This document shows positions 1,162 to 61,966 of a DNA stretch of 64,000 bases, piece after piece. The translations under genes were made by a program, and so were the position numbers. Every line of letters begins with the position of its first letter. Within the stretch, counting starts at the first letter, position 1. The notes below the pieces were generated by a model that saw only the letters and a list, made by a program, of their open reading frames with translations, ran no database searches and was not told the DNA's origin. Origin of the DNA: Rhizophagus irregularis (lineage: Eukaryota > Glomeromycota > Glomeromycetes > Glomerales > Glomeraceae); assembly GCF_026210795.1 (NCBI RefSeq), contig NC_089454.1:682001-746000 (forward strand), written 5' to 3'.

Positions 1162-1169
1162 AAAAAACT

Positions 1170-30239: not shown

Positions 30240-31811
30240 AGGACCCCGGATATCTCCAAAACAGGTCATAAGTCACACTTTCGGTTTAACAAAGCTGCGC
30301 TTGAATTTTATTAATTTTTGCCACAAGTTACTTTAGAGAATACCAGGTATTCAAAAAAGAACTGCAACAAAGTGCAGAACTAATCTAATACAAGAACAAT
30401 AATCTTCCTAGAAAAATACATAAAAAGAAATGCAAGATTATAAACCCAACACCCTCTCTATATAAATAACTATGGCTACCCCCCGAATTATATCTCAAAC
30501 CCGGTAGAATCGACTATGCTATACATACCCAGCGAGACCCCTTGCTACATTTAAAGATCAAAGAATCCCATTGCCAAATACCATTAGCGCTATTAAAAAT
30601 ACACAAAATTCAATTTCCCCTATTTAACTACATACTATGAATAACAAACCTATTTCACAAAGACCTCCGGGAACTTTTTAGTGTCGTGCAGTCCAGCCGA
30701 TGGGGAACTTTTTAGTGTCGTGCAATCCCCGAAGGGACACCCACCTCATTGCGAACAATCCCAAACGGAGGACACCCACCTCATTGCGAACGATCCTTCG
30801 ACCTAAGATCTACCTAGATAAGTCAATCCAATGATAGTCCAACATGTGACCACCATGATCAGCATACTACAAAAACTGCAGTACCTAACCTGTCACCCCC
30901 CTTATCACCCGAGTGATGATCGATTTTGAAAATTGTAACACCAAACTACCATGACGATCAAATTTTCCAGTATCCCCCCACCCCCAAAGAAAATAAGGTT
31001 ACACTGAAAAAAGCGACCAAGAAAAACAAAAAGCAAAAAATAAAAACATAAACCTCAGGAAAACTCGAAGTGCAATGAGAAAAACCTGAGTAAAATTCAC
31101 CAAACATACACCTCAACTCCATCTCCTTATTTTAGAAGACTAACTCCCCAGTTAACAACATCAACTAGCAAGAAATACGTTGGTCAGAAGCTCCTTCCAA
31201 GAAATACCGGTCCGGCCTGCGAACCACTTACGCCAGTTAGACTTTAAAGGCGTAGGAACCAAGACGCACTACTTTTCAACCTTTCAGAAAGCCCAGGGGA
31301 ACGTTCGTATGGAACTGCCATCTTACAGTATTATTGGTAACTCCAAGACTCATGATAACGGTCCTAACTCAATATAAGCCATAAGGAGTTCAGGCGAAAC
31401 TAAAGATTCCGTCAGTAATAACTTCATATAACGTCGAAAAGTCCTTTTACTATCACTCAAGGCAAAAAATCCTCATATTTTTCATCCATAACTTCATGGG
31501 AAAAAATGGGCAGAGCCCAACGGGAGAGAAAGTACGATGATCACTAAGTCACACTTTCGGCAGATTGGCCCATTTTTCGAGAACAAAAAAATCGTTTTTT
31601 GTAAATATCTCGGCATCCAGTAGTCCAATTTTGATGAACTTTTTTTTAAATTGTAGAGCTAAATGAGGGCTACAAAATAAAAAAAAGTTCATTAAAATTG
31701 AATTACTGGATGCTGAGATATTTACAAAAAATGATTTTTTGAGTTTCAGCAAAAAGGGGTGTTTTTGGCCAAAAGTCCATTATGACCTTTATATTAGATA
31801 TCTGGGGTCCT
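30240..31811. mobile_element. Foldback MITE F1, copy 2, split by a retro-insert
   Basis: The ends are AGGACCCCGGATATC and its complement, with the 8-bp duplication GTCCGATT at 30232-30239 and 31812-31819. One arm is interrupted at its 45th base by foreign DNA (30285-31544), flanked by a 16-bp duplication of MITE sequence. Removing the insert restores an element matching the intact copy at 865-1161. Confidence 0.88.
30285..31544. mobile_element. 1.26-kb nonautonomous retro-insert in MITE copy 2
   Basis: Flanked by the direct repeat TAAGTCACACTTTCGG (30269-30284 and 31545-31560), the same bases that flank LINE-1. It has no polymerase frame. It is GC-richer than its surroundings, with repeated segments GGGAACTTTTTAGTGTCGTG (30670, 30706) and GACACCCACCTCATTGCGAA (twice near 30740-30775). 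The edge at 30285 contains TTTATTAATTTTT, comparable with the 3' ends of both LINEs (minus-strand ATTAATAAA). That fits a SINE-like passenger using LINE machinery, in the same orientation. Function inferred. Confidence 0.7.
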
Positions 31812-31819
31812 GTCCGATT

Positions 31820-32094
31820 AATACTAAATTCAAAACTCAATTATAAATCATTTTTATAAATTATAATTTAAAAATTAAGCAGTATTAAGGAAAATTCTCA
31901 TGAATTTTTAATTCTAATTTAACTAATTTAGTATTAAGGTTTTAATTTAAAAATTAAGCAGTATCAAGAAAAATTCTTGCGAATTTTTCTTAATACTGCT
32001 TAATTCTAATTTAACTAATTTAGTATTAAGGCTTTAATTTAAAAATTAAGCAGTATCAAGAAAAATTCTTGCGAATTTTTCTTAATACTGCTTA
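31820..32094. repeat. 92-bp hairpin satellite (left block)
   Basis: Units of about 92 bp contain the inverted pair AAGCAGTATCAAGAAAAATT and GAATTTTTCTTAATACTGCTT with a 4-base loop, plus the linker TTCTAATTTAACTAATTTAG. The array resumes at 37330, on the other side of the DDE element. Confidence 0.85.
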
Positions 32095-32116
32095 TATTTG
32101 CCAATTCGTGAAATTA

Positions 32117-37047: not shown

Positions 37048-37329
37048 TGTAGAAGTTTTTATAACAAAGAAACCGAAATTCCAAAAAAAGTTTTTTTATT
37101 AATAACGAAACCTGTAAAATTAATTATAGATTGTCGATCATTTTATCCTATCGAGTTCCGATCTGTCACTTAATGATATTATTAAAAAAAATCAAAAAAT
37201 AATATAATCAAATCAATTTTATTTATATCAGCGGTGTGAATCTATCATTTTCATGTAACTTGTATTTGCATTTTCTTAATAAAGTTAGTTTTTTGAATAT
37301 AAAAACTTAATTCCATAAATCAGCCCATA

Positions 37330-37475
37330 TGTTAATTCTAATTTAACTAATTTAGTAGTATTAAGGCTTTAATTTAAAAATTAAGCAGTATCAAGGAAAA
37401 TTCTTGCGAATTTTTCTTAATACTGCTTAATTCTAATTTAACTAATTTAATATTAAGGCTTTAATTTAAAAATTA
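37330..37475. repeat. 92-bp hairpin satellite (right block)
   Basis: Same unit as 31820-32094: TTAATTCTAATTTAAC, then the AAGCAGTAT...ATACTGCTT hairpin, then the next unit start. Confidence 0.85.
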
Positions 37476-40427: not shown

Positions 40428-40435
40428 GTATTATA

Positions 40436-41856: not shown

Positions 41857-42073
41857 AAAACCCCAGATATCTCCAAAACAGGTCATAAGTCACACTTTCA
41901 GGCAAACATGGCATAGTAGCCTTTATCTTTATTAATTATTTATCAAACTTTTACAAATTTACATATAAGAAAAAGAAAAGAAAATAGAATAAAAACTAAC
42001 TAAAAACAAAGCTATATAGTCTCCTAGAAAGAAATTAAAATTAAAAGAAAATTCAAAAGAAAAATCGCTAATA

Positions 42074-45000
42074 CTAACACTTCCTAGATCTCCCCCCTTG
42101 ATATATTCCAACCAAAGTAGAAGCAACTATGCTAACATAATAATGAATGACGCGCCCACTATTAAAATCGACACTCCATCCTGCAAAAGCGGTTATTAAG
42201 TAAAGCACCGTTAGACGACCCATAAAACCCGAAATGTAATTAAACCAAGATAATCCATATTGCATCGAGTTTTTTAACCAATCGGTTCTGGAGTCACGTG
42301 AATCAACATGGGTCGGAGGTGGTAAAGACGAGTAAGGTAAATAAGAAGATTTGGGCAAACCTTTAGGCCTTGAGGATTGTTTAAGTTTTGGAGAAATGTT
42401 CATCGTATGTTCCTATAATCCTTTATCATACGAACGTGGATTCCAAATTCGTTTATGGAATTTGTTGACAAAATTGTTATGTATGGCAGCAACCACATTC
42501 ATAGCAGAAAGGCGAGGAATACCTAAGGATTCAAAAACTTCCAAAAAGGCGGTAGGCAAAGCAGCAGGACAAGACTATAGGAAGACCAGTTGTTTGATAA
42601 AAAAGTCCAGCAAGGGAGGGAAATAACTCTATTAATTGAAGAAGAGTAATCACAATTGGCATTATCACCCGCTTCTTTAATTTTTTGGATAAGGTGATGG
42701 AGATATGACGTTAAAATTTGATGTAATTTAACGCAGCGCTTTTTGCATAAAAATAAGTGCATAAAATCTTCTAAGTGGTCTTCACAAGAATGACAGGTTA
42801 GAATCTCTTCGTATAAATCAGGTCGTGTTCTTTTCAACGTTTCCAAAGTAGGTAGGTTTTCCAGAAAAAGTTGAAATTTCAACGTGTGATGTCTAGAGAC
42901 ATTTTCCTTAGTGAAGGAATTATCAAATTTGGGTTGGAACATTAACGTATGCCAGGTAAGAGCCCAGTCAACCACGTATTGGGATGGATCTGTTAAAAGA
43001 GAAATAAAACGGAAGCGAGAAAGAGCTAAAAGGTCTTTCATATACAACATCTGATGATATTGTTTAAACAGATGTCTTGGGTTGGATTACAGACTATGTC
43101 ATCGTAAGACAATAATAATGTCATGAACCGTGCAAGATCGAGACGGGAGATAAGAATAGCATCGTCAGATGTATGGGCAGTATTGGCAAGAGAGTCAGCG
43201 AAGTCATTCCAATAAAAATTAGAGTGAGCCTTTAACCTTAAAGGGTAAGAACTGAAAGTTGTTTATCCACAATCAGTTGTTGAATGATGGCCCAAAGTTC
43301 AAAATTGGTAGTCTTATAATAAAGACGAGAATCTGAATAATCAGATAAAAGACAATGTTTCAAACCCTCGATGGAAGATTGTGAATCTGTATAAATATGA
43401 ACAACAGAATTGACAGGAGAGGCTGATAAGGCAGCATAAATAGCAGCAGCTTCAGCACAAGAAGAAGAAGGCCAATCGTGAATAATACCCTGCTTATAAG
43501 TGGCAATGGAATTAAGAAAGCCAGAATCTTTGACAATTTGAACCCAGCCCCATCCCATAGAAACATCACTAGTTCCTGAATTGATAAGAGAACCATCGGT
43601 GTAAAAGGTATATTGTGAGTCTGGAGAAAGCACGACCGATGATGATGCAGCAACATCACCAGCTGTAAGTAAATGTGGAGTAAGCAAGGCCTGGTCAACA
43701 GTAACAAAGGAAGCAGGGGGAATATCAGCAGCGAGCATCAAGCGAACTGAAGAATTACAAGACGAAGTAACAAAGTCCATGATTTCCGCCCATGACACCA
43801 TAGCAGTCAAGCTGGATATGTGATTCAAAATGGATGATTTCTTCATAGGTAAGATCCATGATAGTCAAAGAGAGGCCGAATAGGAGCAAGAAACAGAACC
43901 AGTAGCAACTGATTTCTTTGAATAGGAAGATTTATTTATATTTAAATCGCAGCCAGGACAAGGTCGTAGAGTAATAAAATCGCTCGGACGAGATAAGCAG
44001 TCTGAAGTCCAATGTACAATAGTACAAGTGGAGCGTTTGGGTTGGATCTGGATCTGTTTACCAAATGAGGGAAGACCATCATCATTCATCGTGACAATCC
44101 AATTCTTTTTATAACCAGAAGGAGGAATGCAAGGAGCAAGTTCTTTTGCAATCAGGCTCACAGGTCGTTGTTCAATCATAAATCGGTCTTTTAACAAACC
44201 AGGTTTGTCTGGAATCGTAACATTAGCAGAGAGATTTTTGTACCAATTGGGAAGACGGGCGTTACCTCGCTTTTGAACAGAATTAGCATATATGACGGAC
44301 CAAGAGAGCAAATGTGTTCCTTGAGGTGTCAAGAGTTGCGAAAGGTAAAAGAGGCCACGTTTCGAAGTCTTGTTAAGTTGGCTTTAAATACATCCAAAGA
44401 AAGACATTGATAAATAGGAGTATGACCATTGGGGTAAGTTATATCAGGCACAGACGATAAATTAGTGTGTGATAAACGAAAGGGAGTTGAGAGTAATAAA
44501 GCTAGAGTATTAGCGATATAATCTTGTTTAAAAATTATAAGAGAAGACCAACAAGTCCAATCCAAAACCATCAAAGGAGAAATAGGAATTAAACAATAAA
44601 ATTGAATAAATCGCAACCTATAATTAAATAATGATTTCATAAAAACAGAGGAAGAATTTGCTAACAAAAATAAATTAGTAAAATGACTTTGTTGTTGGAA
44701 TGAAAATAAATTGATCAAACCCAAAGCATGTGTTAAATATAACATCACATTAGGAACAGAGCATGATAATTTGGCCTTGTGTTTAACTAAGGCACGAATT
44801 GAAGAGGTAATAGTGGAACATTTAGCCTCAGATAGATGCGTAACTTGCATCCGATAATCTAATTTCGGGATCAAAACAGTATTATAGAGATATACCACTT
44901 GTTGGACAGTCAGTTTCGCAAGGCGAAGAGTAGCAGAAAAAGAATTACATTCTCGTTTAAGTTGTTGTCGGATAAAGTTCCTAGAGCCGTTAATATTAAA

Positions 45001-47795
45001 CCAAACTCCTAAAAACCGGAAAGATGAGGACATAGGGATAGGAGTAACAATAATATTGGGCATAGAGTTGAGCGATGAAATCGACAAATTAAAGGCTATA
45101 GGAGACAAATCTCGAGAAGCAGCAACTGCATTAGTGGCTAAAACATATTTGTTATGATTGGCTGAGGTATTGTTTAAACAATAAAATTCTTCAGTAATAG
45201 ACAACATATGTTCCATTCCTTCTTTAGAAGAAGAGATCAAAGTAGAATCATCCATGAACACCAAATTATTAATTTCTAAAACATCCAGAGAGCAAGAAAT
45301 TGATGGAGCAGTGTAGGGAGCCAATGGAAAAACCAAACAATAAGAGTCTTTCTTCTCATTTCTGAGAGTTGTAAGCAGAGGGTCTAAATAAATAACCCAT
45401 AAAAGCGGAGAGATAACTTCACCTTGATCTATTCCAATTTTAACTCTATATGGTGGAGAGATTACCAGTCGCAATGACACGGTTAGAACGTGACATAAAT
45501 AAGGAAAGTAAGAATTGAATTGCATTTTGAGGCAAACATAAACGTTAAAGAGCAAAACGCAACATAGATAAATCTACAGAATCAAATGCTTTTGAAATGT
45601 CTTGAGAAAGAATCCACAAGGGTTGTTTAGTGACTACCGAATCATGGATAATGGATTCCAGAGTAATAATAGGATCACGGCAGGAACCTCCAGGTAAACC
45701 TGCGAAATTACCACCTTGGAGAACATGGTGGGAGGCAAGCAAAGGAGCCAAACGATTATAAAAAAGTTTAACCAAAGCCTTACGAATCACCTCCAATAAA
45801 GTGATAGGACGTGTATTTTTAAGTTGGCATTTCCATTCATGCGGTTTAGGAATAGGAAAAACAGTAGCTTGTCTCCATAAATCGGGGATATTAGCTTCTG
45901 ATAAACAGGCACAAATTAAATTGAAAAGCAAAGTAGAAGCAGAAGGACCTAAGTGTTTCAACATCTCATACGAGATCATAGAAGAACCTGAGGCTTTGTC
46001 ATTAGGCATAGAGGAAATTGTTGAGGACCATTCATCAAGGGTAGGAGGATCCATTAGTGAATCAAAAATAGCTGGAGAAACATCAGCAAGTGGTGCATAA
46101 GCGTTAGACCATCGTTCAGGCAAATCCTGTATAGAAGAAGGAGGAGTAGAAGTAATTGGAACAAAATTTTGAAAATGTTCAATAACTTCTTGATCAATAG
46201 CATCTGGAGAAGTTAATAAAGTAGGGTGTGTTGGATGATCAATAAAGACACGATCAAGAACAATTCGTCATCTGGTTCGTGACAAAGCAGATTCAATAAA
46301 AGTGGAAATATCATTGGTAAAGTTATCATTCCGAGCATCAATTTTAGCCTGAATAGAAGAGGCTTGAAATTTTTTTTCTTTAAGCAAAAGAAGACTTCGT
46401 AAAATCAAAGTCATATTTTCTAGGGTTTGAAGTAAATTGGCAAAATCATCAATTCTTGCATCTCGAAGAAAAGGAGGAAAAGTAATAGGTATAACAAAGG
46501 TCTGTTTATAAAGGAATAAAATATTATTAAGACGTATATAATATAAAGACCACTTAGTTTCATGATGCATAGAGTATGAGATAGGGGTCTTATGAAGAGA
46601 ACAGATAGTTTTAGCCACTTTAGACAAAAATCTATAAGACTGGCATAAACTTTCCAAGTCTTTAGGCTTCTTTGGAATATAAGTATTGCCCACAGTAACT
46701 GAAGGCAATGTGGAATTAGCAGCTTTGATAATCCTAGAATGAAGATATTCACATTTCTGATTGAGAGGCCAAGCGTCAAAAACAAGTGGATCAATTGGAC
46801 ATAATTTATCCAAATTATCAGCAAAAGCAGTCCATTGATCAACAGAAATGGAGTCATATTTGAAACACGTTGAGTATTACGACCAAGTTGACAAGCTCGT
46901 GCAGATTTAATAGCATCTGATAATAATGAAGCATCAAAATATGTAATAATAGGTTGTGATCTGAAATGTGTAAATCATGAGCATCAAAAATAGAAGCTGT
47001 TAACATATATTGGCGAAGAAATGGACAGGACCAAACAAAGTCAATACGAGTAATAATATCCAAATGGTGATAGTTACCTAAGGTACCAGATAAATTAAGG
47101 GGGGTGCAGTCCTCATAATTATGAGAAAGCAAATAATGAAATAATTTGTGAATTCGTTTAGCAGCAACCTGAGGTTGATGCAAAAATATAGGGTAATATT
47201 TCTCCAGATTCATGTTAAAATCACCGCAAATAGCATGGTGAAAATTTTGTGAAGAAGTTTGGGAAATTAAAGAAATTAATTGATCAATGACTTCGTAACG
47301 AAGAACAAGATCATTTGTGGGTGGAATGTAGACGACAAATATACGCAATTTAACATTGCCTTTAAAAAACAAGTCTACAGAAAGAATACGGGAGGAATGG
47401 GATTGATAAAATTGAACATGAGTTGCTAAAGAGTTGTGTATGAATAAAGAAACACCACCAGAAGAGCGACCATGTTTGGTGGAGTCCAAATCAGAATGAA
47501 AAGAAGTATAATCACAAACTCGTTTAGACAAAAATTTCATTCGTTTAGGCGATAGGTGTGTATCAACGATACCACCAAAGGAAATGTGATTTTGTAAAAA
47601 GAAAGAAGAGATTTGGTCCATTTTAAAGGAACCCTTGGCCAGGAGTTTTAAGACCATTAACATTAAAAGAAGAAATGTTAAAAGAATTGGGAATGGGGAA
47701 GTAGAGGAAGAAGAAGAAAATAAAGTATCAGATAAAGGGTCATTAAAAATATCACTAAAATTAACGGGGTTGGGGATTTCGCACAAAGGTATCAT
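42074..47795 (-). pseudogene. LINE-1 ORF2: endonuclease, reverse transcriptase, RNase H
   Basis: From the 5' side: APE-type endonuclease (SSFNVNGL in another frame near 47670, then ICGDFNMN, RIDFVW, SDHNLLL); reverse transcriptase with FPIPKPHEW, SQDISKAFDSVD (about 45570), GIDQGEVISPLLW (45435-45397) and FMDDSTL (FMDD 45258-45247); a zinc/linker part with PCPGCDL; RNase H with FYTDGSL (TDG 43600-43592), CAEAAAIYAAL and HIYTDSQSSIEGL, and KAHSNFYWNDFADSLAN in a shifted frame; C-terminal domain with SWFNYISGFMGR. The endonuclease position usually held by Glu reads IVDTHL here. In-frame breaks include TGA at 46268 and 43865 and TAA at 45545, with frameshifts near 47640, 46860, 45500, 44330 and 43240. 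ORF2 would nick the target and copy the LINE RNA. Confidence 0.88.
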
Positions 47796-47864
47796 AATCT
47801 ATATTATCGTTCATCATTATAACACAATGATAGAAACTGCAGGGTGAAAGAAAGGGATAACAAA

Positions 47865-50023
47865 TCAATCAGACGAAGTCTTATTGACTAAGTCCGAGGA
47901 AGAGCCACCAGAAATGGAGCTAATAAATCTTTCAATAGAGCCGGATAAGTGGTCAAATTTGTTATCTAAGGATCGTTGAAATGAATAAATTTCAGCACGT
48001 TCTTTATTAATAGTTACTTCATCAGCAGTTTCGGGGATGGGGGAAAAAGAAATGGTGGAATGGGGAACAGAAACCGTTGGGAGAGGGAGAACCGGGCCAG
48101 AATTAGACCTGTTCGAAGTGGACAGGTTAGATTGTGTTATATAAGGGGGGTGCTTTGGTGATTGTCAACTAGCATGTATGAAGAATTATTAGGGTCAGGT
48201 GGAAGAACATCGTCTTGCTTATGTCCAAAAACACGAAGTTCCAACCAAGACATCCTCTGATCAGCTAATTCAAAAGCATGAATTCTAGCACGTACACTAG
48301 CCATATCTTCTTGAAGGTTTTTAAGCACCGAAAGGATCTCTTGAATTTGGGAGCAATTAGGATCCACCAAAGGAGGTTGTTTATGGCCAGATGAGTTGGG
48401 AATGGAGGTACTATTACGTTGGGAAGTGGAAAAGGAAACTGAACGGTCTTTGCCTTTACGCTCATTAGAGCGAGGTCATTGTGCAGATTGGATAGATTTA
48501 TTGGAATTAGAAGGATTGGGCGAAGAAGTGTTATTGGTATTGTTATTGCTCCGTCCGGTGTTATTGGCTGAATGGTTACGTTGTCGGGAATTAGAATGAT
48601 CTTTGGATTGAGAACGGGAACGATGTCTATTGCGATTAACAGAAGAGTCATGGTTATTAGATCGTCCAATATTAAAACGTTCTTTTAAGTGTGCAACAGG
48701 ATTACGGGTACGTGAGCGACCACAAGAATTGTTCAATGGGCATGCAGTAGGAGCGCAGCCAAGTTTGCCGCATCTGTGGCAAAGCTTGTTTGTATTCTCT
48801 GGGAGTTCCCATTGGAGTCTGTGGCCTTGCAGGGCGACTGATTGTTCCATTGCGGTGTCCATCATTTGTTGTGATTGAAAAGTGATGTAAGCCCATCGTT
48901 TAGGTTTATAGGAATTAAGAGATAGTGGGATATTAACGGCCATAGCGCCAATTGCTTGTACCAAGGGTGCTAAATGCACATCTTTTGTGTTAGGAGGGAG
49001 CTGAGATAAAACGGTGATGAATTTACGTCGTGTTTTCTTTTGATCAAGGGTGAGGGAGCATGGTGTAATACGTAAACAAGTGGAATAACAATAGATTGCC
49101 CACTGTTTATCCATGAAATGTTGGATAGAAGAAGCATCATCATAAACAATACGAGCTTGCTGAACTTTAGCATTGGTACGTGTATGGATGCGACAGGATT
49201 GTATGTTACCATATTTTTTAAAAAGAGCAGTAATGTCATCTTTCTTGATGAAGAATGGAATGTCAGTGACTTGGATAGCCCGGAGATCTTCATCAGTTCG
49301 GAGTTGCTGAGGGTCATGTAGAAAAAATCAGAGATCGGCAAGATCATCATGTTGGAGAGAAAGGCAGGCATCACGTTCAGTAGTTGAATTAAAATGAATG
49401 ACTAATCGTTTGAGGTCACCAGAACCAGACATGCGAGCGCGGCCAGTGTAAGAGTGATAAGTTTCCAAAAGGAGGTTATTAACAGCGTCAATCATAGCCC
49501 GATTGGTAGGATACTTTTTGATAAATTCAGGGGAAGTATTAGGAGCTGCAGCAGCCTGATAATCACGCCTAAGAATGGAAATAGTGGGCGTGTCAAGGGG
49601 AAGAGAAGAAGTATCATTGGTATCCATAATATCTTTATTAGGAGACACGTCTAAGGGGGAAGTTTCTTTGTCTTTTGGGGCATGCATGGACGCGTCGGTA
49701 CCAGACGTGACAGTACTAGGCGCAGAAGGCGCAGTAATATCTTTGGGAGGAGGAGACGAAAAGTTATCAGCATTATTTTGTTGAGGAGGAGTAGTATTGC
49801 TGCCTCCAGCATCAGCCGCTGAGTCGGCGACGTAGTCTTCTTCCATAGGGTTTTCTGGGAGCGTACGAGTGCGTTTGGAAGGGTTGTTTTTATTGTTTGT
49901 TTGTTCATTATCTGAGTTTGAAACGTCAGAGCCAGAGTCTTTATTTTTGTTTCGTTTGTCTTGACGCTTGGCAGGTCCCCCGTTAGGGTTATTGCCAGCT
50001 TTTTTGTTACCTTTGGGAGGCAT
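47865..50023 (-). pseudogene. LINE-1 ORF1: RRM and zinc-knuckle protein
   Basis: Starts MPPKGNKKAGNN. A Ser/Pro/Asp-rich region is followed by a conserved stretch (PEFIKKYPTNRAMIDAV), a TGA at 49328-49330, then an RRM-like fold (VTDIPFFIKKDDITALFKKY). Next come a second RNA-binding-like part (MAVNIPLSLNSYKPKRWAYI) and a knuckle CHRCGKLGCAPTAC of the spacing C-x2-C-x4-C-x4-C, in which Cys takes the usual His place. A Ser/Arg/Asn-rich tail ends, after TGA at 48476-48478 and a frameshift near 48137, with a helical segment and TGA at 47865-47867. ORF1 proteins of this type coat LINE RNA. LINE-2 ORF1 has the same order and the same knuckle. Confidence 0.82.
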
Positions 50024-50398
50024 TTTAGTAGTAAAATAAGAGATGTGTTAATATGAAGAATAAAAATTTCTTTCGCAAAATTTTTGACCAAGGATCTACA
50101 AGAAAGAGTTGGCAGATCGGGATTAAGTCACACTTTCAGCAAATTAGCCCATTTTTCAGGGGCTTAAAAAATCAATTTTTGTAAATATTTCAGCATCCAG
50201 TAGTCCAATTTTGATGAACATTTTTTTAAATTGTAGAGCTAAATGAGGGCCACAAAATAAAAAAAGTTCATTAAAATTGAATCACTGGATGCTGAGATAT
50301 TTACAAAAAATGATTTTTTGAGTTTTAGCAAAAAGGGGTGTTTTTGGCCAAAAGTCCATTATAACTTTTATATTAGATATCCAGGATCCTCAAATATG

Positions 50399-50903: not shown

Positions 50904-50946
50904 ATTAAACTAGGACCTGAACAATACTGATATAACTCACATTTGA

Positions 50947-52206
50947 GGATATATTATTATACTCTGGAAGGAATGGTCATCTATAAATGGACTCCATCGC
51001 ACATATCACAACACCCTAAAGCGGTCAGCATCATATAGGATACTAACTTTGACGGGTTATCATATAGCACATCCTGAAACCATCTTGTGCCAAGACCTAA
51101 CCCCATGTGGCCTTCCTTACTAACCATTCATCCACTATAAGGTAGCCTCTAGCTAGTATATTTTTGTACAAGTTCCCCCAGCTAATGGTACAGTGATGGC
51201 TTTCATAATATCAGTTAACTATTTAGAACCCTTCCGAGTATCAGCTCTTAGATACTAGGTTTATTCAAGGCTACTTACCCCGACGTAATTACCTATCACC
51301 GATGGTATAGTTGTGAACCCTTAGTGGTAGTTATGAAGGTATACCAACACAGACCGTGACCACCAGGACAGGAAACCTCAAGAAATCTCTAGGATCACCT
51401 TTTATAGTAGGCTCTTAATCATGAAGGATTACCAACTAGGAGCGAGTATGGTAGGGAATCGAACCCCATATTTATGTCCTGATACCATTGGTTCAGAAAC
51501 ATACAGGTTGGTCTAAACCTATTAGAAGGTAAACTAATATGAAGACATTGCACCTTGACTTTACCATTTATGGTACCCATCTAGCACGACAAACCCCACG
51601 CAGTAAAGTTTGCCACACTCTTAGTGGTATAGTTCTTACTAGTGACCACCAAGACAAGATACCACTCCTAAGGTATGCAAGCAGTGACCTCAAAGACAAG
51701 ACTCTGAATTTACCAACGATCTCTTAGGGAACATGAAAAGAACATCAAAACTCTTTGTTGAAATATGTGACCGTTACTGTACATATTAATACACCAAGAT
51801 GCAATCCAATCCAACTAATCCCTGTATCTTCACGCTATTGGTGGTAGCATCTACAGTAAAATTCGTTTTATTTCTGTGATTGGCAGAATTGAACCTGCGA
51901 CCTCACCATACTCAGGCTTAATGAGGGTCTCAATCATATACTACTGAGATATGGTTAAGGTTGCTTGTCTAAACCTCTTCAAAATCTTATGATTAGTTTC
52001 ATCAAAATTTTACTATAGATTTATTATAGTTTTGGCAGAGTTTCGGCAGTTTCGGCATTTATAATAAGTTTCGGCAGTTTCGCCTTTCTCTAAAGTTTCG
52101 CCAGTTTTTTAATATAACTTTAATATAGTTTCGGCAGAATTTCACTTTTTGGCGAAACGCCATCTTGCCTAAACCCCTAGGTTTCGGCAAGCAACCTTAG
52201 ATATGG
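50947..52206 (-). mobile_element. tRNA-headed SINE-like insert, about 1.0 kb plus nested MITE
   Basis: Flanked by the 19-bp repeat TGATATAACTCACATTTGA (50928-50946 and 52207-52225). Read on the minus strand it starts, beside the nested MITE, with a tRNA-like head (about 51955-51875): an A-box-like TATCTCAGTAGTATATGA and a B-box GGTTCAATTCT inside GGTCGCAGGTTCAATTCTGCC. A second T-arm-like GGGGTTCGATTCCC lies near 51460. The rest is noncoding, GC-richer DNA with repeats such as CTTAGTGGTA. A polymerase III promoter and LINE-dependent mobilisation are inferred from this structure. It is long for a SINE. Confidence 0.65.
51956..52198. mobile_element. MULE-like MITE nested in the SINE-like insert
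   Basis: The ends TAAGGTTGCTTGTCTAAACC and AAGGTTGCTTGCCGAAACC (complement) are flanked by the 9-bp repeat AGATATGGT (51947-51955 and 52199-52207). The interior contains repeated TTTCGGCAG and TTTCGCC words. Confidence 0.78.
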
Positions 52207-55200
52207 TGATATAACTCACATTTGATAGACTAACAGTGATTTTTATTAATCATTTATAACTTCGTACACTCAAAATACAATGAAAACAAAAAGTAAATAA
52301 ATAAACTAAACAAAAAGAAAATAGTCGCACAAATTTGTACATATAGAGAAGCAAACTAAACTATAAATCCCAAACTTGTATATCCCAACTTTAAACCTAA
52401 AAAGCAAAGTTTCGGATCAACTACCCAAATCCAGAAAATCTTACCCGATCTTACAACCTGCCAAGATATTATTCCAGATGAGGACTGTTCGACTCTTCAG
52501 AAAACCCAACAGGTGATGAAACCATGAGAGTCGTTGGGTTAAAGAGGAATGGAGCCATTTGATACCAAGAGAGGACCATTCAGAAGCCTGAAGCGGAGAA
52601 AGAGGCTCATCGGCCTGAGACAGAGCAATTGGAGGAGCAGAAAAGCGGAAAGGTTGAACAGAAGGTCCTTTGTATGATCGAAGAGTACTTGGCAAAATTC
52701 CTTTTGCCGTGTCTTTTGTAACTTTAATTTTACACCTTGATCGCCAAAGACCATGATAAATTTCGCGTTGTAATTTCAAATATATACGGGAAATAATAGG
52801 AGTCAGGAGATAAAGATTTATAATTAAGACCAGAGCAGCGAATAAGGCACCTTGAAAGATCACATGGGATGAAGCCTCAGAGAAACCAAGAAGCAGAAAA
52901 AGAGGAGTAATTATTATTCAAAAGCAAATCTGGAAGACCAAGCGTCGATAAATTATGAAGAGCCATAAGAAGTTCATCATATGATTGTTTGCAACGTGGA
53001 GAAGAGGAAACCTTAGTAGCAAGTTTGACCAGAAAACGTTCAATAAGATCTGTAGTTACATCTTTGTGATTCAGAAGCACAGGGTTATCATCCTCAACAT
53101 CCAGGTAGCTAGGTGAACAAATGAAAAGATATTCTAACGTTTTCATGAAAGTTCCACAAATCGGACACAAGGAGTTATCAGCATATAGGCCAGGAAATCT
53201 TTGGGAAAGTTTATACATGATAGGAAGTTCATCAAACCAAAGTTTAAGACGGAATTGCGTAAAAACGGAAGTTTTGGTTACGGCGTTGTTCGGATATAAA
53301 GTTTGTCTAAAAATTTCAAAAGAAAGAGACCAATCCATAACATAAAAAGTAGATTGCAAGGGCGAAAAACGGGAAAGTCCAATCAAAGAGAAGAAATGGC
53401 AAATATCAGTGAAGGAACGCCAATAATCAACTGGGTCTCGAGTTAAAAGTTCATCATATCCAGTGAAGAGACCCATGGTTTTCAAAAAGGAAGGAAAGAT
53501 ATCATCCATAAATGGTGTAGGTTGCAATAAGGCAGGCCAGTCAGGTGTTTTAAAAAGATTACGGGCCCAAACAGAATATGTGGGAATAGAGTCTTTGGTA
53601 AAACTAAAGAATCTATAAGTAATTCTTCTGGATATCAGCAACTCTGAGATACAGGACCATAAAGAATGATTTTTCATTCAGACACGTTGTATAGGAGAAG
53701 CGTCACACCATCTTGAGAACAACGTATCAAAATTAAACAGGGAAACAAAGGACACAGACGAATCCAAAAAAAGGGAATTCAACACGTATAATATAAAAGC
53801 TAGTTATGCAACATCGTTGTATGGAGAAATCATAGGACAAGAAAAAATTCTAGAGTCAAGTATGAAATCGTCAAGGGTTTGTACCCAGGCACAGACCAAT
53901 AATGAAGTTGTAGAATCAATGGCGTGAAGAGTTCCAGATATATGGAAAGTGGTGTCCGAACTTAGGGCAAAATTACAATTTGGTACTGGAGTAAGATCGG
54001 GTAGTAGGGCAGGAGAACTGTCACAATGCAATAAAGGTAGTTGTGCTAATGCTATATATCTATCAGGAACATATAGTTCAGAAAATCCAGATAAAAATCT
54101 AAAATAAGAACATAAAATAAAAGGAGAAAGTTTTAAATTAATAATTTGTTGAGAAATATCTACATGTACAGTCATTTGAAAAAGTTGCAAACAACGATAA
54201 GAAGGTAAAACAGATAAACAAGAACGATGAATTAATTTTCCGCCAACTGTTTTCAAAGCCAAAGGGCCTAGGGAACAACCGGGACAAGGAGTAATCTGCA
54301 TTTGATTATGCATAGTGAGAATCCAATGGGAGAAATATACAACCCGAGTACCAGAGTCGTCATCAAAAGTATAAAAGACCCGCCCAAAAATAAGAGAATT
54401 TGAAGAATCAATTCCAGCAATCTAATAATACTTATTTCGGAATCGAATGTAAGAGGAAGTATTAATTGTATCAACAAACTTTCCCACCAAAGTTGATAAG
54501 GATGGAGTAATATCAATAAGTCTCATACGTTTAGGTAAAAGAGAAGTTAGACTGGAAAGAGAGATAATAATCCGAAACCAAGAAGGAGTTTTTCCAGTGG
54601 CGGCAACAAGGCCCATATGCTTAAGGTCATTCCATGTAAATGGGAAATTATAAAATAAATCCACAACTTGTGAAAGACACCAGAGAGCAGATTTAAGCCA
54701 AGAACGCGTTTCTAGAACAGCCAGGTTAGAAGATAAAGAGACTAAAGGACACGCTTCATCAGGCATTAACTTGAGAAATGTATAATCTGAAAAATCAAAT
54801 TGGAGTCCAGATTCTCAAAGTAATTTGATGGCTTGAAAAAGCCAGTTATGACTAATTGAACGGCGTTTGGAAGTCCATAAAGAAAAATCTATAAGAGAAT
54901 CAAGAGAATTAGGCCATTTTAAAGTAAGCTGCAGAGTTCGTAACATAATTAGAACCCAATTCGCCTGCTTGGAACCAGTGGACAATAAAGAGATCCAAGA
55001 TAGGAAACGACATAAAAGTCGTTCACATAAAGAATCATAAGGATTGGCATCTTTACTGAAAAACCTGCTAGTCAAAGCTATAGAAGGAAAAGTGCGAGCC
55101 ACAGAAAGAGCTTTGCGTTGTAAACCATAATATCTGTTAGCGATTCGCATAACCTGTGATTCTGACAAATATAATACTTGGAAGCAGAATTGGACTTTCG

Positions 55201-57911
55201 GTAAAACAACCGAAGAGTGAAGATAAGCCAATTGAACAGGGAATAATTTCTTAAATCGTACAGACGTAATAAAGGAGGAGTAAATATCTTTAAGTTGTGA
55301 AAGGACAAAATTAGGGGATCCTAGTAAATTGAACCAAACACCCAAAAACCGAAAATATGAGGATAATCTCAGGGCTTGTAAAGAGAAGCTCATAGAAGAA
55401 AGATAAGCCGGAATTTCAGAGACCAATTGAAAAGAAATTAAATTATTGCCAGCTGAAGAAGAGACTAACTCGTATTTTGAGAAGTTTACTGTAATATTTA
55501 AAAAATAAAAATCATGAGCTACAGAAAGTAATTGTTCTAAGCCCGCCAAAGAAGAAGCAATTAAAGTGGAATTATCCATATAGGTAAGTTGAGTAATAGG
55601 TACGGCAACATCTTCATTATTATTGATGTCAAGAATATTTGCAGAGATACCAGAACTTCATATATAAGGGGAAATTGCTGATGATGATAATTTAGTCAAA
55701 AGGGGATCGAAGTAAATAGTCCAAAGAAGTGGAGAAATGACCTCGCCTTGATCAATACCGATCAAAAGATCGTATGATTCAGTTTTGCCAAAAGGAGTTA
55801 AAATTCTATTCTTCCTAGAAGTAAATAGACTTATTATAAAGTTAGAAAGATTAGAGGGAAATTTAAGCCGGTCGAAACAAAGTCGAAGCATGCTCAGATC
55901 TATAGAATCAAACGCTTTAGAAATATCTTGACTTAGAATCCATAATTCTTGCGGGATTTGAGAAACACGGTGGCTTTTCATAATGCCATCAAATATATTA
56001 ATAGGAGTGTTGACAGATGAACCAGGGAGTCCAGCAAAATTGTCACCAGTAAGCACTTGATATTTAGTTATAATTCGAGAAAGACGATCTGTAATAATTT
56101 TGACCAACAATTTCCGAGCAGTTTCCAATAAAGTAATTGGGCGGGTATTCTTTAATAAACATTCAAACTCATGAGGTTTAGGAATGGGTACAATAGAAGC
56201 TAAACGCCAATCCTCAGGGATATCGGATTTCGCCAAACACGAATTCATCAGTTTACACAGATAAAGGATTCCCTCAGAAGATAATAATCTAAACCATTCA
56301 TAAGGTATGGATGAGGGACCAGGAGCCTTGTGGTGTGGAGAGTTATTAATAACTGCTAGGAGTTCTTCTTCAGTAACAGGCGCCATAACCATTAAATATA
56401 TATCTGGGTCAATTGAGGAGATAGGAGTATAGTGACTTTTCCATCGATCAGGAAGACCGTGAAGGGTTTTGAACGGAGATTGACTGAAACCAACCACATT
56501 TTGAAAATGTTTAATAGCAGCCTTATGAATGTCGTCCGGTGCAACCAACAATTGAGGATTACCAGGTATATCAGTGATAAGTACTCGATCCAAGACAATA
56601 CTACGCTTTTCACGATTCAAGGAGCTACAGATAAATTTTCCTTTATCTTCATAAAAATTGGAGTTCCGTTCAGCAATAGCTGCTTTCATATCAACTTGTT
56701 TAAAATTATCCAATTCCACGGTGATTTTTCCAGAAATAAACTGTTTAACGGTTCGTAAAGAAGTTCGAAATTTTGTTAAAAAGGATAGAAAATCTAAATG
56801 CAAAGATGTAAAGACCGAATAAAGTGATGTAGGATTAGGAAGAGTATCAATAAGGACACTCTGATCGGGAAATAGGTCAATAAATTCTTTATAAAAAGAA
56901 GGAAAAAATCGATTCCAAGAAAAATAAAGATCAGAAATCGAAAAGATTTTAAAAAGTGAACTAATATAATGATCTAATTTATGACTAAAGTGATTAAAAG
57001 GTCTAAGTTCAAAGGGAATAGTTCAAGGCTTATTCAAGGAAATAACTTGTTTGGGAAAAGCACAACGAGCAGCATTAAGTAAGGCAGATTTCAGTCTATG
57101 CCAGTCATTATTAAGATGTCCAGTACCATAAGAAGGTGCAAGTTGTTTAAGTCCAGAATCCACTTTCGCAGTGAAAAGAATCTTTTGTTCAGGGAGAGCA
57201 GCATGAACATTAAATTCGGTTCGATAACGTGAGCGCTGTTTTAGATAACTCAGAGTACGTAGATCACGAATATTGAGAAAGTCGAAGAAAGCGATCAATA
57301 AAAAATGATCAGAGCTAAAGGTGTCTGAAGAATCTAAAACATACAACCACAAATGCGCAGCAGGAAAAGCAAAAGAAGTCCAAAAATAATCCAAACGGGA
57401 TAGATGGTTAGAACTCGAGGATCGAAAAGTAGGTAGTGGGGAAGAAGAGAAATCAAAAACACATAAATCATCAAATTGATGTAAATGTAAATATCGAAAC
57501 AAAGGATTAATAGGGGATAATATAGTAGGATCAGAAATATTTTTAAGAAAACTATCAAATTCAGCATTCAGGTCGCCTTCTAACAAAACATGAGCACCAG
57601 TTGAACGTGCCTCGGTAATCCAAGAAATAAGAGTGGAGTGACATTCAGAAATTAATTTATTATTAAGTCCATTAGAAGGGGGTATATAAGCTCCAATAAT
57701 AAAAATATTTTGTCGACCTGGTAGCTGTAGAAAAAGTGATATTAAACGGTCCTTAAAGAATCATTTTCTGATTACATACATAGCTAAACTAGAGTGAAAA
57801 ATAATTCCAACACCCGCATGATGATTGATGGAAGATGAAAATGAAAACCATTTGTGATATGAATATTGTGATAAATAAGGTTCACGCACATATTTGTGAG
57901 CGGTGAGATCT

Positions 57912-59140
57912 CCCAATTCCCTCTGTCATCAATTTACAGAGTTGCCACATCGAACGGGCATTCTCATGGTCAAACGAATGAATAATCGAATGAACGAACA
58001 AATAAACGAACAAGCAAATATTCAACGGCATAATTAACAAACAACGTAATCAACAAACAACATACAACAACATGTAACGACAACATTCTTGGTTCACAAC
58101 ATAAATAGCGTTAGTAATATAAAACGTTGAACGATATAAAATAAAATTTAACTTCTCTAAATTTTCCCCAAATTATATTCACTTTTACCTTTAATTTCAA
58201 ACTTCGATAGCTCTCGCTACGAATTATTACTTTTCAAAAATGTATATTTAATTCATCTTAAAATTTCATTTTATTCAATTAAGATTTATTAGGCAAACAT
58301 TAATCAAAGTTTAGAGCGAACCTATTACCTTTAATTAACATTAAACTTTACTAACAAATAATTAAATGAAACTTATATTTTTTATTGAGTTCTGTGGATG
58401 AGAACTATGGAATTACTTTGAATTCCGCTCTCTATTTATACAAATTTTATGCTACTTTCTATTCTTTCTATATACTATCTATATTTAAATACGTTATCTT
58501 TTAATACACTATCTTTCTATTTTTAATATGTTATATTCCATCTCTTATATACCATCTTTTTAATATGTGTTATATTATCTTTTATATTATCTTCTTATAT
58601 TATCTTTTATGGAAATAAAATTTAGTAAAAATGGAAGTAAAATTTAAGATATATTGTAAATTTTGTAATCAAAAGTTTATCTATAGAATAGTAAAATTCA
58701 AGAATGAATCTTTAGAAATCTTTAGAATAAAAAAAATATTAAATAAGGATTTTTTAAGAAAGAAAGATAAATGTCTGCAAGAAATAATAAAACATGAGAA
58801 TGAATGTATGTATTTTCGTTATGCGTATTCCTTTAGTCCGCTATCCCTCCATTTTATATGATTTACCTTTTGTGGCTTATAATTATTCTTTCTAATTGTT
58901 CTTGTTGTTAAAGATTGCTAAGCCGCAATTGATCGACTCTAATTATTCTATTAGTTCTTCGTCAATCACTTGATAAATATTACATCATGTAGATCATTAT
59001 TCTTCCTAAATGTTTATCCTTTTCGGCTAATTATTTATCCATCTACGCCAATTCATAATTAATTTGTTCGTTCCTAATATTTGGCAATTACATTTGGTAA
59101 TCGAATTTTATCATCTTTTCATGCTTAATATTTGACCGTT
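57912..59140. mobile_element. Insertion of about 1.2 kb in LINE-2 endonuclease
   Basis: The endonuclease reading stops after LTETNLRSPAVNG and resumes beyond this segment at KYVREPYLSQYS. GATCACCCGCT on one side and GATCTCACCGCT on the other may be the duplicated target. The interior has repeats of AACGAACAAATAAACGAACA type (57975-58020) and TATCTTTTAATACACTATC type (58470-58610), and one small frame. The exact edges are uncertain. Confidence 0.55.
58631..58861 (+). CDS. Hypothetical 76-aa Cys/His-containing protein
   Basis: An ATG-started frame with YCKFCNQKFI near the start and CLQEIIKHENEC later, so a C-x2-C pair and an H-x3-C pair spaced by about 40 residues, plus many Lys. This might be a degenerate zinc finger of the BED or C2H2 type. 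It lies inside the segment interrupting LINE-2 and has no other support. It could be chance. Confidence 0.3.
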   Translation: MEVKFKIYCKFCNQKFIYRIVKFKNESLEIFRIKKILNKDFLRKKDKCLQEIIKHENECMYFRYAYSFSPLSLHFI

Positions 59141-59461
59141 TACAGCGGGTGATCGTAAATTAGTTTCAGTAAGGATTAAACCATGAAGTTGGTGGGAAAG
59201 CAATAGAGAAAATAAATTTAATTGTTTTAAAGAGTGAACTATAGAACGAACATTAAAAGTACCAATTCGTAAAACATTAGAAAAACTAAGTTCACGATTA
59301 AATTGATCAGGAGAAATGTCAAAACAATGGGGAGGGGAAGGAGAAAGTAAAAGATTCAAATCAGACGCACTATCAGGGGGTGAGATCTCTGTGAACCACC
59401 CATTATATAATTGTTGTCAATCATTTAGAAAGGGAGGGTGGAGCCGGGGAAGAGAAAGACT

Positions 59462-61527
59462 CTAATTTTCAAGAATAAAGCCTAATTGATTGGAGAGGCT
59501 TTGTTGAGTATTGGAGACTGAAGAGATTTCTTGACGCAATTTTGATGAATCATTAGAGGAGCCGCCAAGGTTGACACGATTAGGAAGAGGAGTATGTCTA
59601 CTGGAAAGGATAGAATTAGAATTAAGACTGGAGAAGAAGGCATCAGGAGAAGTGTCCATGATAGAAAAGTTGGAGTCAGCGTGTACAGGTGAAAAGGAAG
59701 AGGTGTTATTAATATTATTGTTATTATCAGGGTCCGTTTGATAGTCCCAACCAGCGTCATTTGGGTAAGAATTAGGCGCATAAGAGGGAGTATCTTCAGG
59801 AGGGTCGTCATAGTTCATCATCGACTCAAGTTCCTTGATGCAGTAGTCATCATCAGTGATAGAGTATTCCATCCATATAACTTTTTCATCAAGATCTTTA
59901 AGCTGCTGAGCAATGTCCTTGGGTTGTTTTTTAATTTCATCTATGACATCCAGAGGTAGGGAGGACTGGTGCTGGGGAGAGGGAGAGGAGAAGTGACCAG
60001 AATTGGATCCAGATTGAGCATTGGCATTGGCATTTCGCTGAGAATTTATAGCGTCACTGCGAGAGCCATGAACAGGCGGTCGAGCATGAGAGGAACCAAA
60101 ATTGGATTGATTGGGATTTTTTGAGCGGTCAATAGAGAAACGGTTATGAGAACGTGAATTAGATCTTGACCGTAAGCGGAAATTTGAAGGGGATTGTGAT
60201 CACTGAGAGTCAGAGCGGCCACGCTTCAGGCCAGCATTGAACCGTGTATAAAGTTTATCTAAGCGATCATTGGTTTTTCGAGCAGGCCGAGGGCTACAAA
60301 CAGAAGGAGAACATCCATGTCTTCCACAGACATGACAGAGATCTTTGGCATCATTGGGAGAGTGCCAGGTTAAACCTTTATTTCAGAAGGCAATTGATAA
60401 ATCCTTAGCTGCCTCAAGATTTTCGAACGATGAGAAATTCAAATAGGCGTAAGGCTTGGGTTTGTAGGAATTGAAAGAAAGAGGGATGTTAACAGCTTTA
60501 GCATTGACTTGTGAGGCGATTTCTAATAAGTCCGCTTCTTTGATATTTTTGGAGATGCCAGCAAGGATGGCAACATGCTCTCTGCAGACATCACGTTGGA
60601 CTTTCGAATAAGATACCAGACAAACGCGTAGGGAGTTACCGAGACAAATGATCACCCAGATGTCTTCAAATTGTATAACAGAGCTCGCATTAGAAAATTG
60701 GACGTAGGCATTGTAGTAGTGATTCCTAGTGGTAAGTTTGCATTTAACTACATCGCCATATCGGGAAAAAGCCTGTCTGATTTGTGTTTCATTAAGGAAA
60801 AGGGGAATGTCAGTAACGAACAAAGACTTTTCTTCGTCACTGCGACGTGCGTCTGCAGGCGAGTAGGGGTAAAAGCCAAATCGAGAAGATCAGCACATGG
60901 GGATTGGATGCATTTGGTATGATCATCATGGACAAAGAAAAAGACAAGGATTTTTTTATTGTCTCCTGATCCTTCACAATGGGCACGCGAGCCATAAGAG
61001 GAATATCGGGAGAGGGCTCTATCAACTTCGTCACACATGGCGCAGTTAGTAGGAAATTTTTCTTTGAACGTGACAAATGTGTCACGAAGATATGCCGCAG
61101 CATGAAATCTGGAAGGAGAAGATTTGATGGCAGCAGCATCACCATCAGGAGAAGGCTGGCGTGTAGGTACTTCAAAGGCCACAGATTTGCCCTTATCATT
61201 AGTCAGAGGGGTCGTGGAAACGGGAAGGGGATGGGCGTGTATAGAAGACTCTAAAGACGTATTAGTAGGAGGTGGTTGAGTAATAACAGGAACTCTATTA
61301 ACGGGAAGGCCAGAAGGAACACTGGAGATAAGGTTAGAAGCAGGAGCAGAGGGCGAAGTTATGTCAACATTTATAGCATCATCAGAGACAATACGCGAAC
61401 ATTTGTTAGGCGCGCCAGTGGTACTTGTGGGAGACAGAGGTCAGTCTCCAGAAGGAGCAAAAGTGTCAGGACGCGGTGGTGGCGAAATATCAGGGTTAAT
61501 AACAGAAGGAGCTGGAGGTGTAGTCAT
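59462..61527 (-). pseudogene. LINE-2 ORF1: RRM and zinc-knuckle protein
   Basis: Starts MTTPPAPSVINPDI; TGA at 61443-61441, then a Pro/Ser-rich part and a conserved KEKFPTNCAMCDEVDRAL (parallel to KKYPTNRAMIDAV in LINE-1). After a frameshift near 60840 comes an RRM-like fold (VTDIPLFLNETQIRQAFSRY) and AVNIPLSFNSYKPKPYAYL. TGA at 60385-60383 precedes the knuckle CHVCGRHGCSPSVC, again C-x2-C-x4-C-x4-C. A Ser/Arg/Asn-rich tail follows, with TGA at 60202-60200, then a coiled-coil-like segment (VIDEIKKQPKDIAQQLKDL) and an acidic end at 59462. Confidence 0.82.
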
Positions 61528-61966
61528 AGTATAAAGCTCAGTAAAGAGGAAGGCAACTAGAAAAATATTAGTATATCGAACGAGCACTTAGAAATTTTCA
61601 AACGAAAATTTCAAAAATAAATTTTATTAGTAATTTCAAAAATCAGGGAAAGAGTTGCGTAGATCCTCTCATAACTCACATTTGAGTTTACATAAAGTTT
61701 ATATTAAAATTTTTCAAAAGTTGCTTATTACAGGAGTATTTTTAAAATTTTGGTATCCTACATACTTCTGTTTTTAACACAACCAGTGATTCGATTTTAA
61801 TAAAATTTATATCATTAGATTTGTCTTGATAAGAGAATTCTAATGATAGTAAAATCAAATTCCTAGCTTCAATATTGATAGAGTTATGTCATAAAATGTA
61901 TTTTTACTTCAGTACTTAAAATTTACTTGTGAGTTATATTAGTATTATTCGGAATTCTATTAAACT

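What the first reader, a model, noticed from the sequence alone, without database searches (positions are those of the whole stretch)
30269..61685. Non-LTR retroelements that land on one motif inside DNA-transposon ends
Four independent insertions in this window (30285, 41902, 50947, 52226) abut the same motif. Family F1 copies read TAAGTCACACTTTC and family F2 reads TAACTCACATTTGA at the junction, giving the consensus TAASTCACAYTT. All have 15-19 bp duplications of the motif. In F1 copies 2 and 3 the insertion is at the identical base although the inserted DNAs differ (a 1.26-kb passenger and an 8.2-kb LINE). Known site-specific LINEs target rDNA, telomeres, tRNA or microsatellites; a LINE group specialised on MITE ends would be a safe-haven strategy using another transposon's copy number.
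Basis: partly seen in the sequence, partly recalled or inferred. Interest (0 to 1): 0.92.

Follow-up and report, generated by a model that had tools for sequence, protein, structure and literature searches.

The report
Retrotransposons specialised on MITE ends
In a genome that fits the symbiotic fungus Rhizophagus irregularis, a group of LINE retrotransposons inserts at one fixed spot near the ends of small DNA transposons, and sister families have specialised on different transposon ends, which makes target switching testable.

Summary
The window lies in a 146.7-Mb, 32-contig assembly that fits Rhizophagus irregularis (inferred from size and protein names). LINE1 (41902-50123) and passenger S1 sit at one base, 44 nt inside the right end of F1, a ~298-bp MITE with 8-bp duplications. 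LINE2 (52226-61670) and passenger P2 sit 35 nt inside F2, a 308-bp MITE. Among best matches, 36 of 38 LINE1 ends and 28 of 28 LINE2 ends that were reached lie in that MITE end or at a motif copy beside another element. Outer flanks differ (28 of 28 tested) and 5' breakpoints vary, so events are independent. Against 'one motif': of about 219 LINE1-type 3' ends at most 44 abut the F1 motif. Of 40 others read (of 83 listed), 18 sit 16 nt from the end of a third MITE (F4, ~295 bp), 20 at a fixed site in an unidentified repeat, 2 at neither. Endonuclease sequence co-segregates with target where assignable (58 of 128). Closest precedent: Xenopus Tx1L (its target recalled). Ten paper searches showed no report for this fungus. 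Shown: site specificity. Inferred: the endonuclease sets the target; safe-haven benefit.

The parts
863..1163 (-). F1: intact empty MITE, ~298 bp, terminal AGGACCCCGGATATCT, target motif at 1132-1121 (- strand), 8-bp duplication AAAAAACT
   Evidence: 867 first-look candidates genome-wide, the best 40 scored
30240..30284 (.). F1 copy 2, outer (right) end with first copy of the target duplication TAAGTCACACTTTCGG (30269-30284)
30285..31544 (-). S1: 1.26-kb passenger; a 230-bp stretch ending 15 nt before its 3' end is 62% identical to the LINE1 3' region
   Evidence: no protein search was run on it
31545..31811 (.). F1 copy 2, rest of the MITE with second motif copy; outer 8-bp duplication GTCCGATT
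41857..41901 (.). F1 copy 3, outer end (mutated terminus AAAACCCC) with first motif copy TAAGTCACACTTTCAG (41886-41901)
41902..50123 (-). LINE1: ~8.2-kb APE-type LINE with ORF1 (RRM), endonuclease, reverse transcriptase and RNase H; reading frames broken
46854..47795 (-). LINE1 endonuclease domain (PF14529), open piece of 313 aa
   Evidence: E 2.2e-6
50124..50390 (.). F1 copy 3, rest of the MITE with second motif copy
50912..50946 (.). F2 outer end, AGGACCTGAACAATACTGATATAACTCACATTTGA
50947..52206 (-). P2: 1.26-kb passenger with two tRNA-type B-box matches; no match to the LINE2 tail at the threshold used
52211..52225 (.). middle copy of the F2 target duplication, between P2 and LINE2 (stacked insertions)
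52226..61670 (-). LINE2: ~9.4-kb LINE of the same group (endonuclease 57023-57757, reverse transcriptase 55658-57019); reading frames broken
61671..61958 (.). F2, rest of the MITE, ending GAATTCT, followed by the 8-bp duplication ATTAAACT

Best explanation
A group of APE-endonuclease LINEs in this genome (fits Rhizophagus irregularis) inserts by target-primed reverse transcription at one fixed base in the subterminal part of MITEs. The window's LINE1 family uses mainly the right end of F1, LINE2 uses F2, and a sister of LINE1 with almost the same 20-nt 3' end uses F4. The strand ending ...TAAGTCACACTTTCRG (F1) or ...AACTCACATTTGA (F2) is nicked and primes cDNA from the LINE RNA 3' end, so the LINE 3' end faces the MITE terminus. 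Insertion duplicates the motif, so the target is regenerated and later copies stack head to tail. Non-autonomous passengers (S1, P2, tRNA-headed elements) share the targets. Shown: fixed base, fixed orientation, duplications, varied 5' breakpoints, stacking, correlation of endonuclease sequence with target. Inferred: that the endonuclease sets the choice, that passengers are moved by the LINE proteins, and that high MITE copy number makes this a low-cost refuge.
For: LINE1: 38 of the 40 best matches (window copy included) were read: 24 in F1 right end, 1 in F1 left end, 8 with motif then LINE1 or S1 5' end. Of the 5 left over, by eye, two are motif then truncated S1, one is an F1 end with the motif deleted, one is another repeat (CTAAAACTCAAAATATGAG), one has no motif. 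LINE2: 30 of 31 matches read: 15 F2 by script and one more by eye, 9 stacked, 3 motif then other sequence, 2 where the match stops short of the 3' end. S1: 20 of 40 in F1, 6 stacked, 14 other; all 19 at 90% identity or more are in F1 or stacked. P2: 6 of 13 in F2, 2 stacked, 5 other, four of which stop short of the 3' end. F2 copies: 14 of the 40 scored (window included) lack just the outermost part (alignment starts at 18-41), i.e. are broken at the target; one is split by a 68-bp P2 fragment with a 14-bp overlap. In 11 LINE2 loci the rest of F2 lies 296-1662 bp upstream; 9 of 11 show an 11-19-bp duplication (up to 1 mismatch and an offset of up to 7 allowed, no shuffled control). 28 outer flanks tested, 28 distinct. 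F4: among 100 of 127 listed sites of TGGTTTTTGACYAGTG, 16 facing pairs 235-307 bp apart (10 at exactly 295) and 19 facing pairs 1.4-23 kb apart, five of them 8449-8555 bp, as expected for 295 bp plus one LINE; no pairs under 1 kb in the opposite order. Endonuclease identity to LINE1 by target: F1 n=15, 64-100%; F4 n=22, 55-60%; beta n=19, 54-57%; neither n=2; 70 of 128 not assignable.
Against: At most 44 of about 219 LINE1-type 3' ends abut the F1 motif (the two mismatch limits differ, so this is not an exact fraction), so the 40-copy sample was biased to the window's own subfamily. Fourteen of 40 S1-like ends (7 at 78% identity, 7 at 82-89%) sit elsewhere, four of them at F4-like sequence (by eye). 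The beta target (TTGAYAAGGACTGATGAC...; 20 of 40 sampled non-F1 ends) lies in a repeat that I could not identify, so 'MITE ends' is not shown for that part. One LINE1 end (L057, read again as L168), one more sampled end (L166) and L144 are at none of the four targets. Whether the enzyme needs only the short motif or the wider MITE end is unresolved: of 30 motif sites read, 8 lie outside F1/F2/F3 and are empty, but only 2 of 18 F1 sites there are filled, too few to decide.
Confidence: 0.88

Rival explanations
1. The LINE-filled MITE spread by gene conversion or segmental duplication between near-identical MITE copies, so the shared site reflects one or few ancient insertions.
For: F1 copies are many and similar (the 40 best scored are at 98% or more, of 867 candidates); beta-target flanks are 100% identical over 90 bp at 28 of 40 places, so for beta this is not excluded.
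Against: 28 of 28 tested outer flanks differ; in LINE2 loci the distance from inner F2 to the LINE 3' end varies from 296 to 1662 bp, with duplications in 9 of 11; different elements (LINE1 and S1; LINE2 and P2) share one base; stacked copies exist.
Confidence: 0.05
2. The enzyme recognises only a 12-16-bp sequence, and MITE ends are hit because they supply most copies of it; there is no specialisation on MITEs as such.
For: The motif is mostly carried by repeats (738 against 146 control sites); stacking on LINE 5' ends shows that the motif copy and its inner flank can suffice; one LINE1 is in another repeat with a partly similar sequence (L144).
Against: One LINE1 is in the F1 left end, whose motif differs while the outer flank is alike (L047). 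No non-stacked LINE1 junction read has the motif outside F1, but the numbers are too small to exclude it.
Confidence: 0.35
3. Composite elements: LINE-filled MITEs are themselves moved by a MITE transposase, so part of the copy number is cut-and-paste hitch-hiking.
For: F1 copy 2, filled with S1, keeps both termini and a perfect 8-bp duplication; filled F4 elements of ~8.5 kb keep both ends.
Against: An insertion into a MITE already in place gives the same picture; the varied 5' breakpoints need separate LINE insertions.
Confidence: 0.15

Closest known systems
Xenopus laevis Tx1L (Tx1 clade LINE; target is the DNA element Tx1D, recalled)
   Same: APE-type LINE with a target-specific endonuclease; PMC8869645 has it among the references for a target list that includes 'other TEs' (passages). 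That it inserts at a fixed site in a DNA transposon is recalled.
   Different: Here several sister families use at least three MITE families; hosts are ~300-bp MITEs (8-bp duplications shown for F1 and F2); an RNase H domain is present in LINE1; the host is a fungus. Christensen et al. 2000 (PMC85248) is not held.
R1 clade LINEs (R1, TRAS, SART; members recalled)
   Same: PMC4640811 says most reported target-specific families fall in early-branched, Tx1 and R1 groups, and that the Tx1 and R1 ones carry an APE-type endonuclease (passages). PMC8647823 names 'LINE R1' in R. irregularis (passages).
   Different: Targets here are MITE ends and one unidentified repeat; the beta target has no Rfam match.
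Dada DNA transposons
   Same: A group whose sister lineages use different but related repeated targets (passages of PMC8869645).
   Different: DNA transposons aimed at RNA genes, not LINEs aimed at transposon ends.
R. irregularis TE libraries (PMC11075540, PMC8647823)
   Same: PMC11075540 lists LINE families (L1-Tx1, L1-R1, I and others) and SINEs in this species (passages).
   Different: No target specificity in the passages seen; 'site-specific' occurs 0 times in either main text.

Membership tests
Site-specific APE-type LINE | APE endonuclease plus reverse transcriptase | tested here: met
   LINE1 PF14529 E 2.2e-6, RVT_1 E 1e-9; LINE2 RVT_1 E 4.7e-14, PF14529 27.3 bits, just under the 27.4 cut-off
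Site-specific APE-type LINE | independent insertions at one base, with duplications and varied 5' breakpoints | tested here: met
Site-specific APE-type LINE | endonuclease cuts the target in vitro | not testable with these tools
   needs purified protein
Tx1 clade | reverse transcriptase groups with Tx1L | not tested
   no Tx1L reference sequence at hand; best PDB sequence matches of the LINE2 piece are 8c8j (RNA-directed DNA polymerase), LINE-1 ORF2 and then R2
Tx1L-like way of life (not clade membership) | fixed site in a DNA transposon (as Tx1L in Tx1D, recalled) | tested here: met
R1 clade | reverse transcriptase groups with R1 | not tested
   no reference tree built
MITE (F1, F2) | short, inverted termini, fixed-length target duplication, many copies | tested here: met
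   298 and 308 bp, 8-bp duplications, 867 and 367 first-look candidates
MITE (F4) | short, inverted termini, many copies | tested here: met
   16 facing pairs, 235-307 bp, among 100 of 127 sites listed
MITE (F4) | target duplication | not tested
hAT superfamily (for F1, F2) | 8-bp duplication | tested here: met
   other superfamilies share this length (recalled)
hAT superfamily (for F1, F2) | autonomous partner with hAT transposase | not tested
   none sought

The most novel reading that the evidence does not exclude
A LINE group that radiates by jumping from one DNA transposon family to another. Sister families keep nearly the same 3' terminal sequence, and so probably the same RNA recognition, while their endonucleases have diverged to about 55-60% identity and each is bound to a different transposon end (F1, F2, F4, perhaps beta). 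Host-transposon turnover would then drive LINE speciation, as in a parasite living on parasites.
Probability: 0.55. Interest if true: 0.86.

Novelty: new variant of a known kind. Interest (0 to 1): 0.74.

Why it matters
How a LINE endonuclease changes its target is, to my knowledge, an open question, partly because site-specific families tend to differ in everything at once. Here one genome holds sister families whose 20-nt 3' ends are nearly the same, whose targets are short and known to the base, and whose endonucleases fall into separate clades (which clade uses which target is inferred from identity bands). That allows domain swaps and a direct reading of the recognition code, and offers candidates for targeted insertion tools. 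It also shows a refuge made of other transposons rather than RNA genes or telomeres.

Tried and rejected
Segmental duplication: rejected for F1, 28 of 28 tested outer flanks differ. MITE end carried as part of the LINE 3' end: rejected, because the end belongs to an ordinary MITE that also occurs empty, with its own 8-bp duplication. RNA-gene target: no Rfam hit at gathering scores in the window, none up to E 1 for three beta flanks, no tRNA by ARAGORN. The '40 best copies' proof was found to be biased once one search gave 219 ends; the sample was widened. CACTA membership of F4 (terminus CACTRGTCAAAAACCA) was considered from memory and not tested. Placing the LINEs in a named clade: not settled (one search found no PDB match for the endonuclease). 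Motif-only versus MITE-context recognition: not settled. Paper searches: (ten, the cap); their listings showed no report of these targets in Rhizophagus. The library holds open-licence papers only. PMC6895275 and PMC4585706 mention Tx1L but gave no target statement in the passages seen.
Full report
WHAT IS IN THE WINDOW. The window is G000:C26:682001-746000 of a 146.7-Mb assembly in 32 contigs. That size (recalled as fitting the species), with homologous proteins named mostly Rhizophagus irregularis and R. clarus, points to R. irregularis; the tool does not name it. F1 is intact at 863-1163: ~298 bp, termini AGGACCCCGGATATCT, 8-bp duplication AAAAAACT. A second copy (30240-31811) is split by S1 and a third (41857-50390) by LINE1. 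F2 (50912-50946 plus 61671-61958) is a 308-bp element with duplication ATTAAACT, split by P2 and LINE2 in tandem. Nine motif matches stand against 0.04 expected. All four inserts run on the - strand and carry the motif on both sides, 15-19 bp shared.

WHAT THE INSERTS ARE. LINE1 (8.2 kb) has an RRM-bearing ORF1, an APE-type endonuclease, reverse transcriptase and RNase H. LINE2 (9.4 kb) has endonuclease and reverse transcriptase matches. The two are 58% identical over 1445 bp and 75% over 88 bp close to the 3' end. S1 is 62% identical to the LINE1 tail over 230 bp, with two short matches (46 and 64 bp) to LINE2; I ran no protein search on it. P2 has two tRNA-type B-box matches and no tail match. 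Both LINEs in the window have broken reading frames. Elsewhere the endonuclease of relatives lies in open frames of up to 1930 aa; I single out none.

GENOME-WIDE TEST. I read target flanks for 38 of 40 listed LINE1 3' ends, 30 of 31 LINE2, 40 of 40 S1 and 13 of 13 P2, window copies included. First-look candidates were 268, 30, 118 and 13. LINE1: 24 F1 right end, 1 F1 left end, 8 stacked on a LINE1 or S1 5' end; of the remaining 5, two are motif then truncated S1, one an F1 end with the motif deleted, one another repeat, one without motif. LINE2: 15 F2 by script plus L090 by eye, 9 stacked, 3 motif then other sequence, 2 where the match stops short of the 3' end. S1: 20 F1, 6 stacked, 14 other (7 at 78% identity, 7 at 82-89%); all 19 at 90% or more are F1 or stacked. 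P2: 6 F2, 2 stacked, 5 other (four stop short of the 3' end; the fifth, L140, has the motif).

INDEPENDENCE. For the 28 LINE1 or S1 loci whose F1 terminus fitted a strict pattern (of 44 classed as F1 right end) the sequence outside the MITE was distinct in 28 of 28. In 11 LINE2 loci part of F2 lies upstream, at 296, 368, 461, 467, 506, 718, 1348, 1361, 1432, 1650 and 1662 bp from the 3' end of the match; the longer ones may hold more than one element. In 10 of 11 the F2 part ends at position 283-291 of 308, the target; 9 of 11 show an 11-19-bp duplication (one mismatch and an offset up to 7 allowed, no shuffled control). Among 40 scored F2 copies (367 candidates), 14 lack only the outermost part and so are broken at the target; seven of the 14 have a LINE2 or P2 match within 2.3 kb on the expected side, two more within 11 kb, five none. 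One holds a 68-bp P2 fragment between F2 1-36 and F2 23-308. Of the 26 others, one (alignment from position 8) has a LINE2 match 103 bp away.

THE RESULT THAT CHANGED THE PICTURE. The 20-nt LINE1 3' end (up to 2 mismatches) occurs 219 times, control 0. The same end followed by the F1 motif (up to 3 mismatches over 34 nt) occurs 44 times, control 0; a few of the 44 exceed the first limit. Of the 100 listed ends, 16 are in that set and one is in the F1 left end; of the other 83 I read 40, every second one in list order. By eye, 18 are followed by TGGTTTTTGACYAGTG or a close variant, with varied sequence beyond; 20 by TTGAYAAGGACTGATGAC or a close variant, then a conserved flank or another element's 5' part; 2 by neither. 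The first site (127 copies, reversed control 27) comes in facing pairs: among the 100 listed, 16 pairs at 235-307 bp, ten of them at exactly 295 bp, and 19 pairs at 1.4-23 kb, five of them 8449-8555 bp, which equals 295 bp plus one LINE; no pairs under 1 kb in the opposite order. So it is the end of a third MITE, F4, with the LINE 16 nt from the terminus. The second, beta, has at least 107 candidates and is unidentified; no Rfam match. Of 20 same-strand neighbours under 20 kb apart among the non-F1 ends, 13 are 8180-8215 bp apart, that is in head-to-tail arrays.

ENDONUCLEASE AND TARGET. The LINE1 endonuclease protein found 128 matches (676 candidates, 127 scored). I joined these by position and strand (4.0-6.5 kb) to 3' ends of known target; for F4 a target site on the expected strand was accepted even where the 3' end was not among the 100 listed. 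Result: F1 n=15 (64-100% identity, median 84), F4 n=22 (55-60), beta n=19 (54-57), neither n=2; 70 of 128 could not be joined. One F4-type copy is 86% identical to LINE1 over the last 350 nt (C1:242314). A tree of 42 of 104 public homologues plus LINE1 shows a LINE1 clade (100/100), two further R. irregularis clades (100/97, and 94/84 with one long branch) and one R. clarus clade (100/99). That the two further clades are the F4 and beta families is inferred from identity bands only.

MECHANISM. Target-primed reverse transcription at a nick on the motif strand explains fixed orientation, 15-19-bp duplications and truncation (established LINE biology, recalled; not assayed here). Because the motif is duplicated, each insertion leaves a new target, which explains stacking and arrays. 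The endonuclease is the likely determinant, since it co-varies with target while the 20-nt 3' end does not; this is correlation, not proof.

KNOWN OR NEW. A LINE aimed at a DNA transposon has a precedent, Xenopus Tx1L; I saw it only as a reference behind the words 'other TEs' in PMC8869645 (passages), and its target Tx1D is recalled. PMC4640811 (passages) places most target-specific families in early-branched, Tx1 and R1 groups. R. irregularis TE papers list such clades but say nothing on targets in the passages seen. I therefore call it a new variant of a known kind: several sister families, several MITE hosts, shared passengers.

LIMITS. Best-match samples lean to close relatives; candidate lists are lower bounds. 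The by-eye classes (L034, L036, L075, L076, L079, L090, L140, L144, L147 and the 40) are mine. Beta is unidentified, and motif-only recognition is not excluded.

Noticed in passing
window 50947-52206 (- strand): P2 holds two tRNA-like B-box matches (GGTTCAATTC and GGTTCGATTC); elements with a tRNA-like head also stack on LINE2 or P2 3' ends (L067, L081, L083, L132), which looks like a SINE family sharing the F2 target. ARAGORN called no tRNA.
   Followed up: partly
L005, L006, L022, L027: A further end type F3, AGGACCCCGGACATCACATATATAACTCACATTTGAG, carries the same motif; the four read were empty.
   Followed up: no
G000 C2:2323176-2366703, C23:3202424-3218833, C10, C11 and others: Head-to-tail LINE arrays with a period of about 8.2 kb.
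   Followed up: partly
L110, L111, L119, L126, L144: Four S1-like ends and one LINE1 end abut parts of a common repeat (CTAAAAATCAAATTATCAC...TTTGCTAAAACTCAAAATATGAG), perhaps another target.
   Followed up: no
window 12922-13641: Tandem array with a mostly 28-bp spacing, 17 register copies.
   Followed up: no
window 27818-28318 and 29322-29691: Tandem repeats of 167 and 185 bp upstream of the first filled F1 copy.
   Followed up: no
window 14382-15219 and 23715-24604: Blocks repeated about 9.3 kb apart at 85-90% identity, possibly a local duplication.
   Followed up: no
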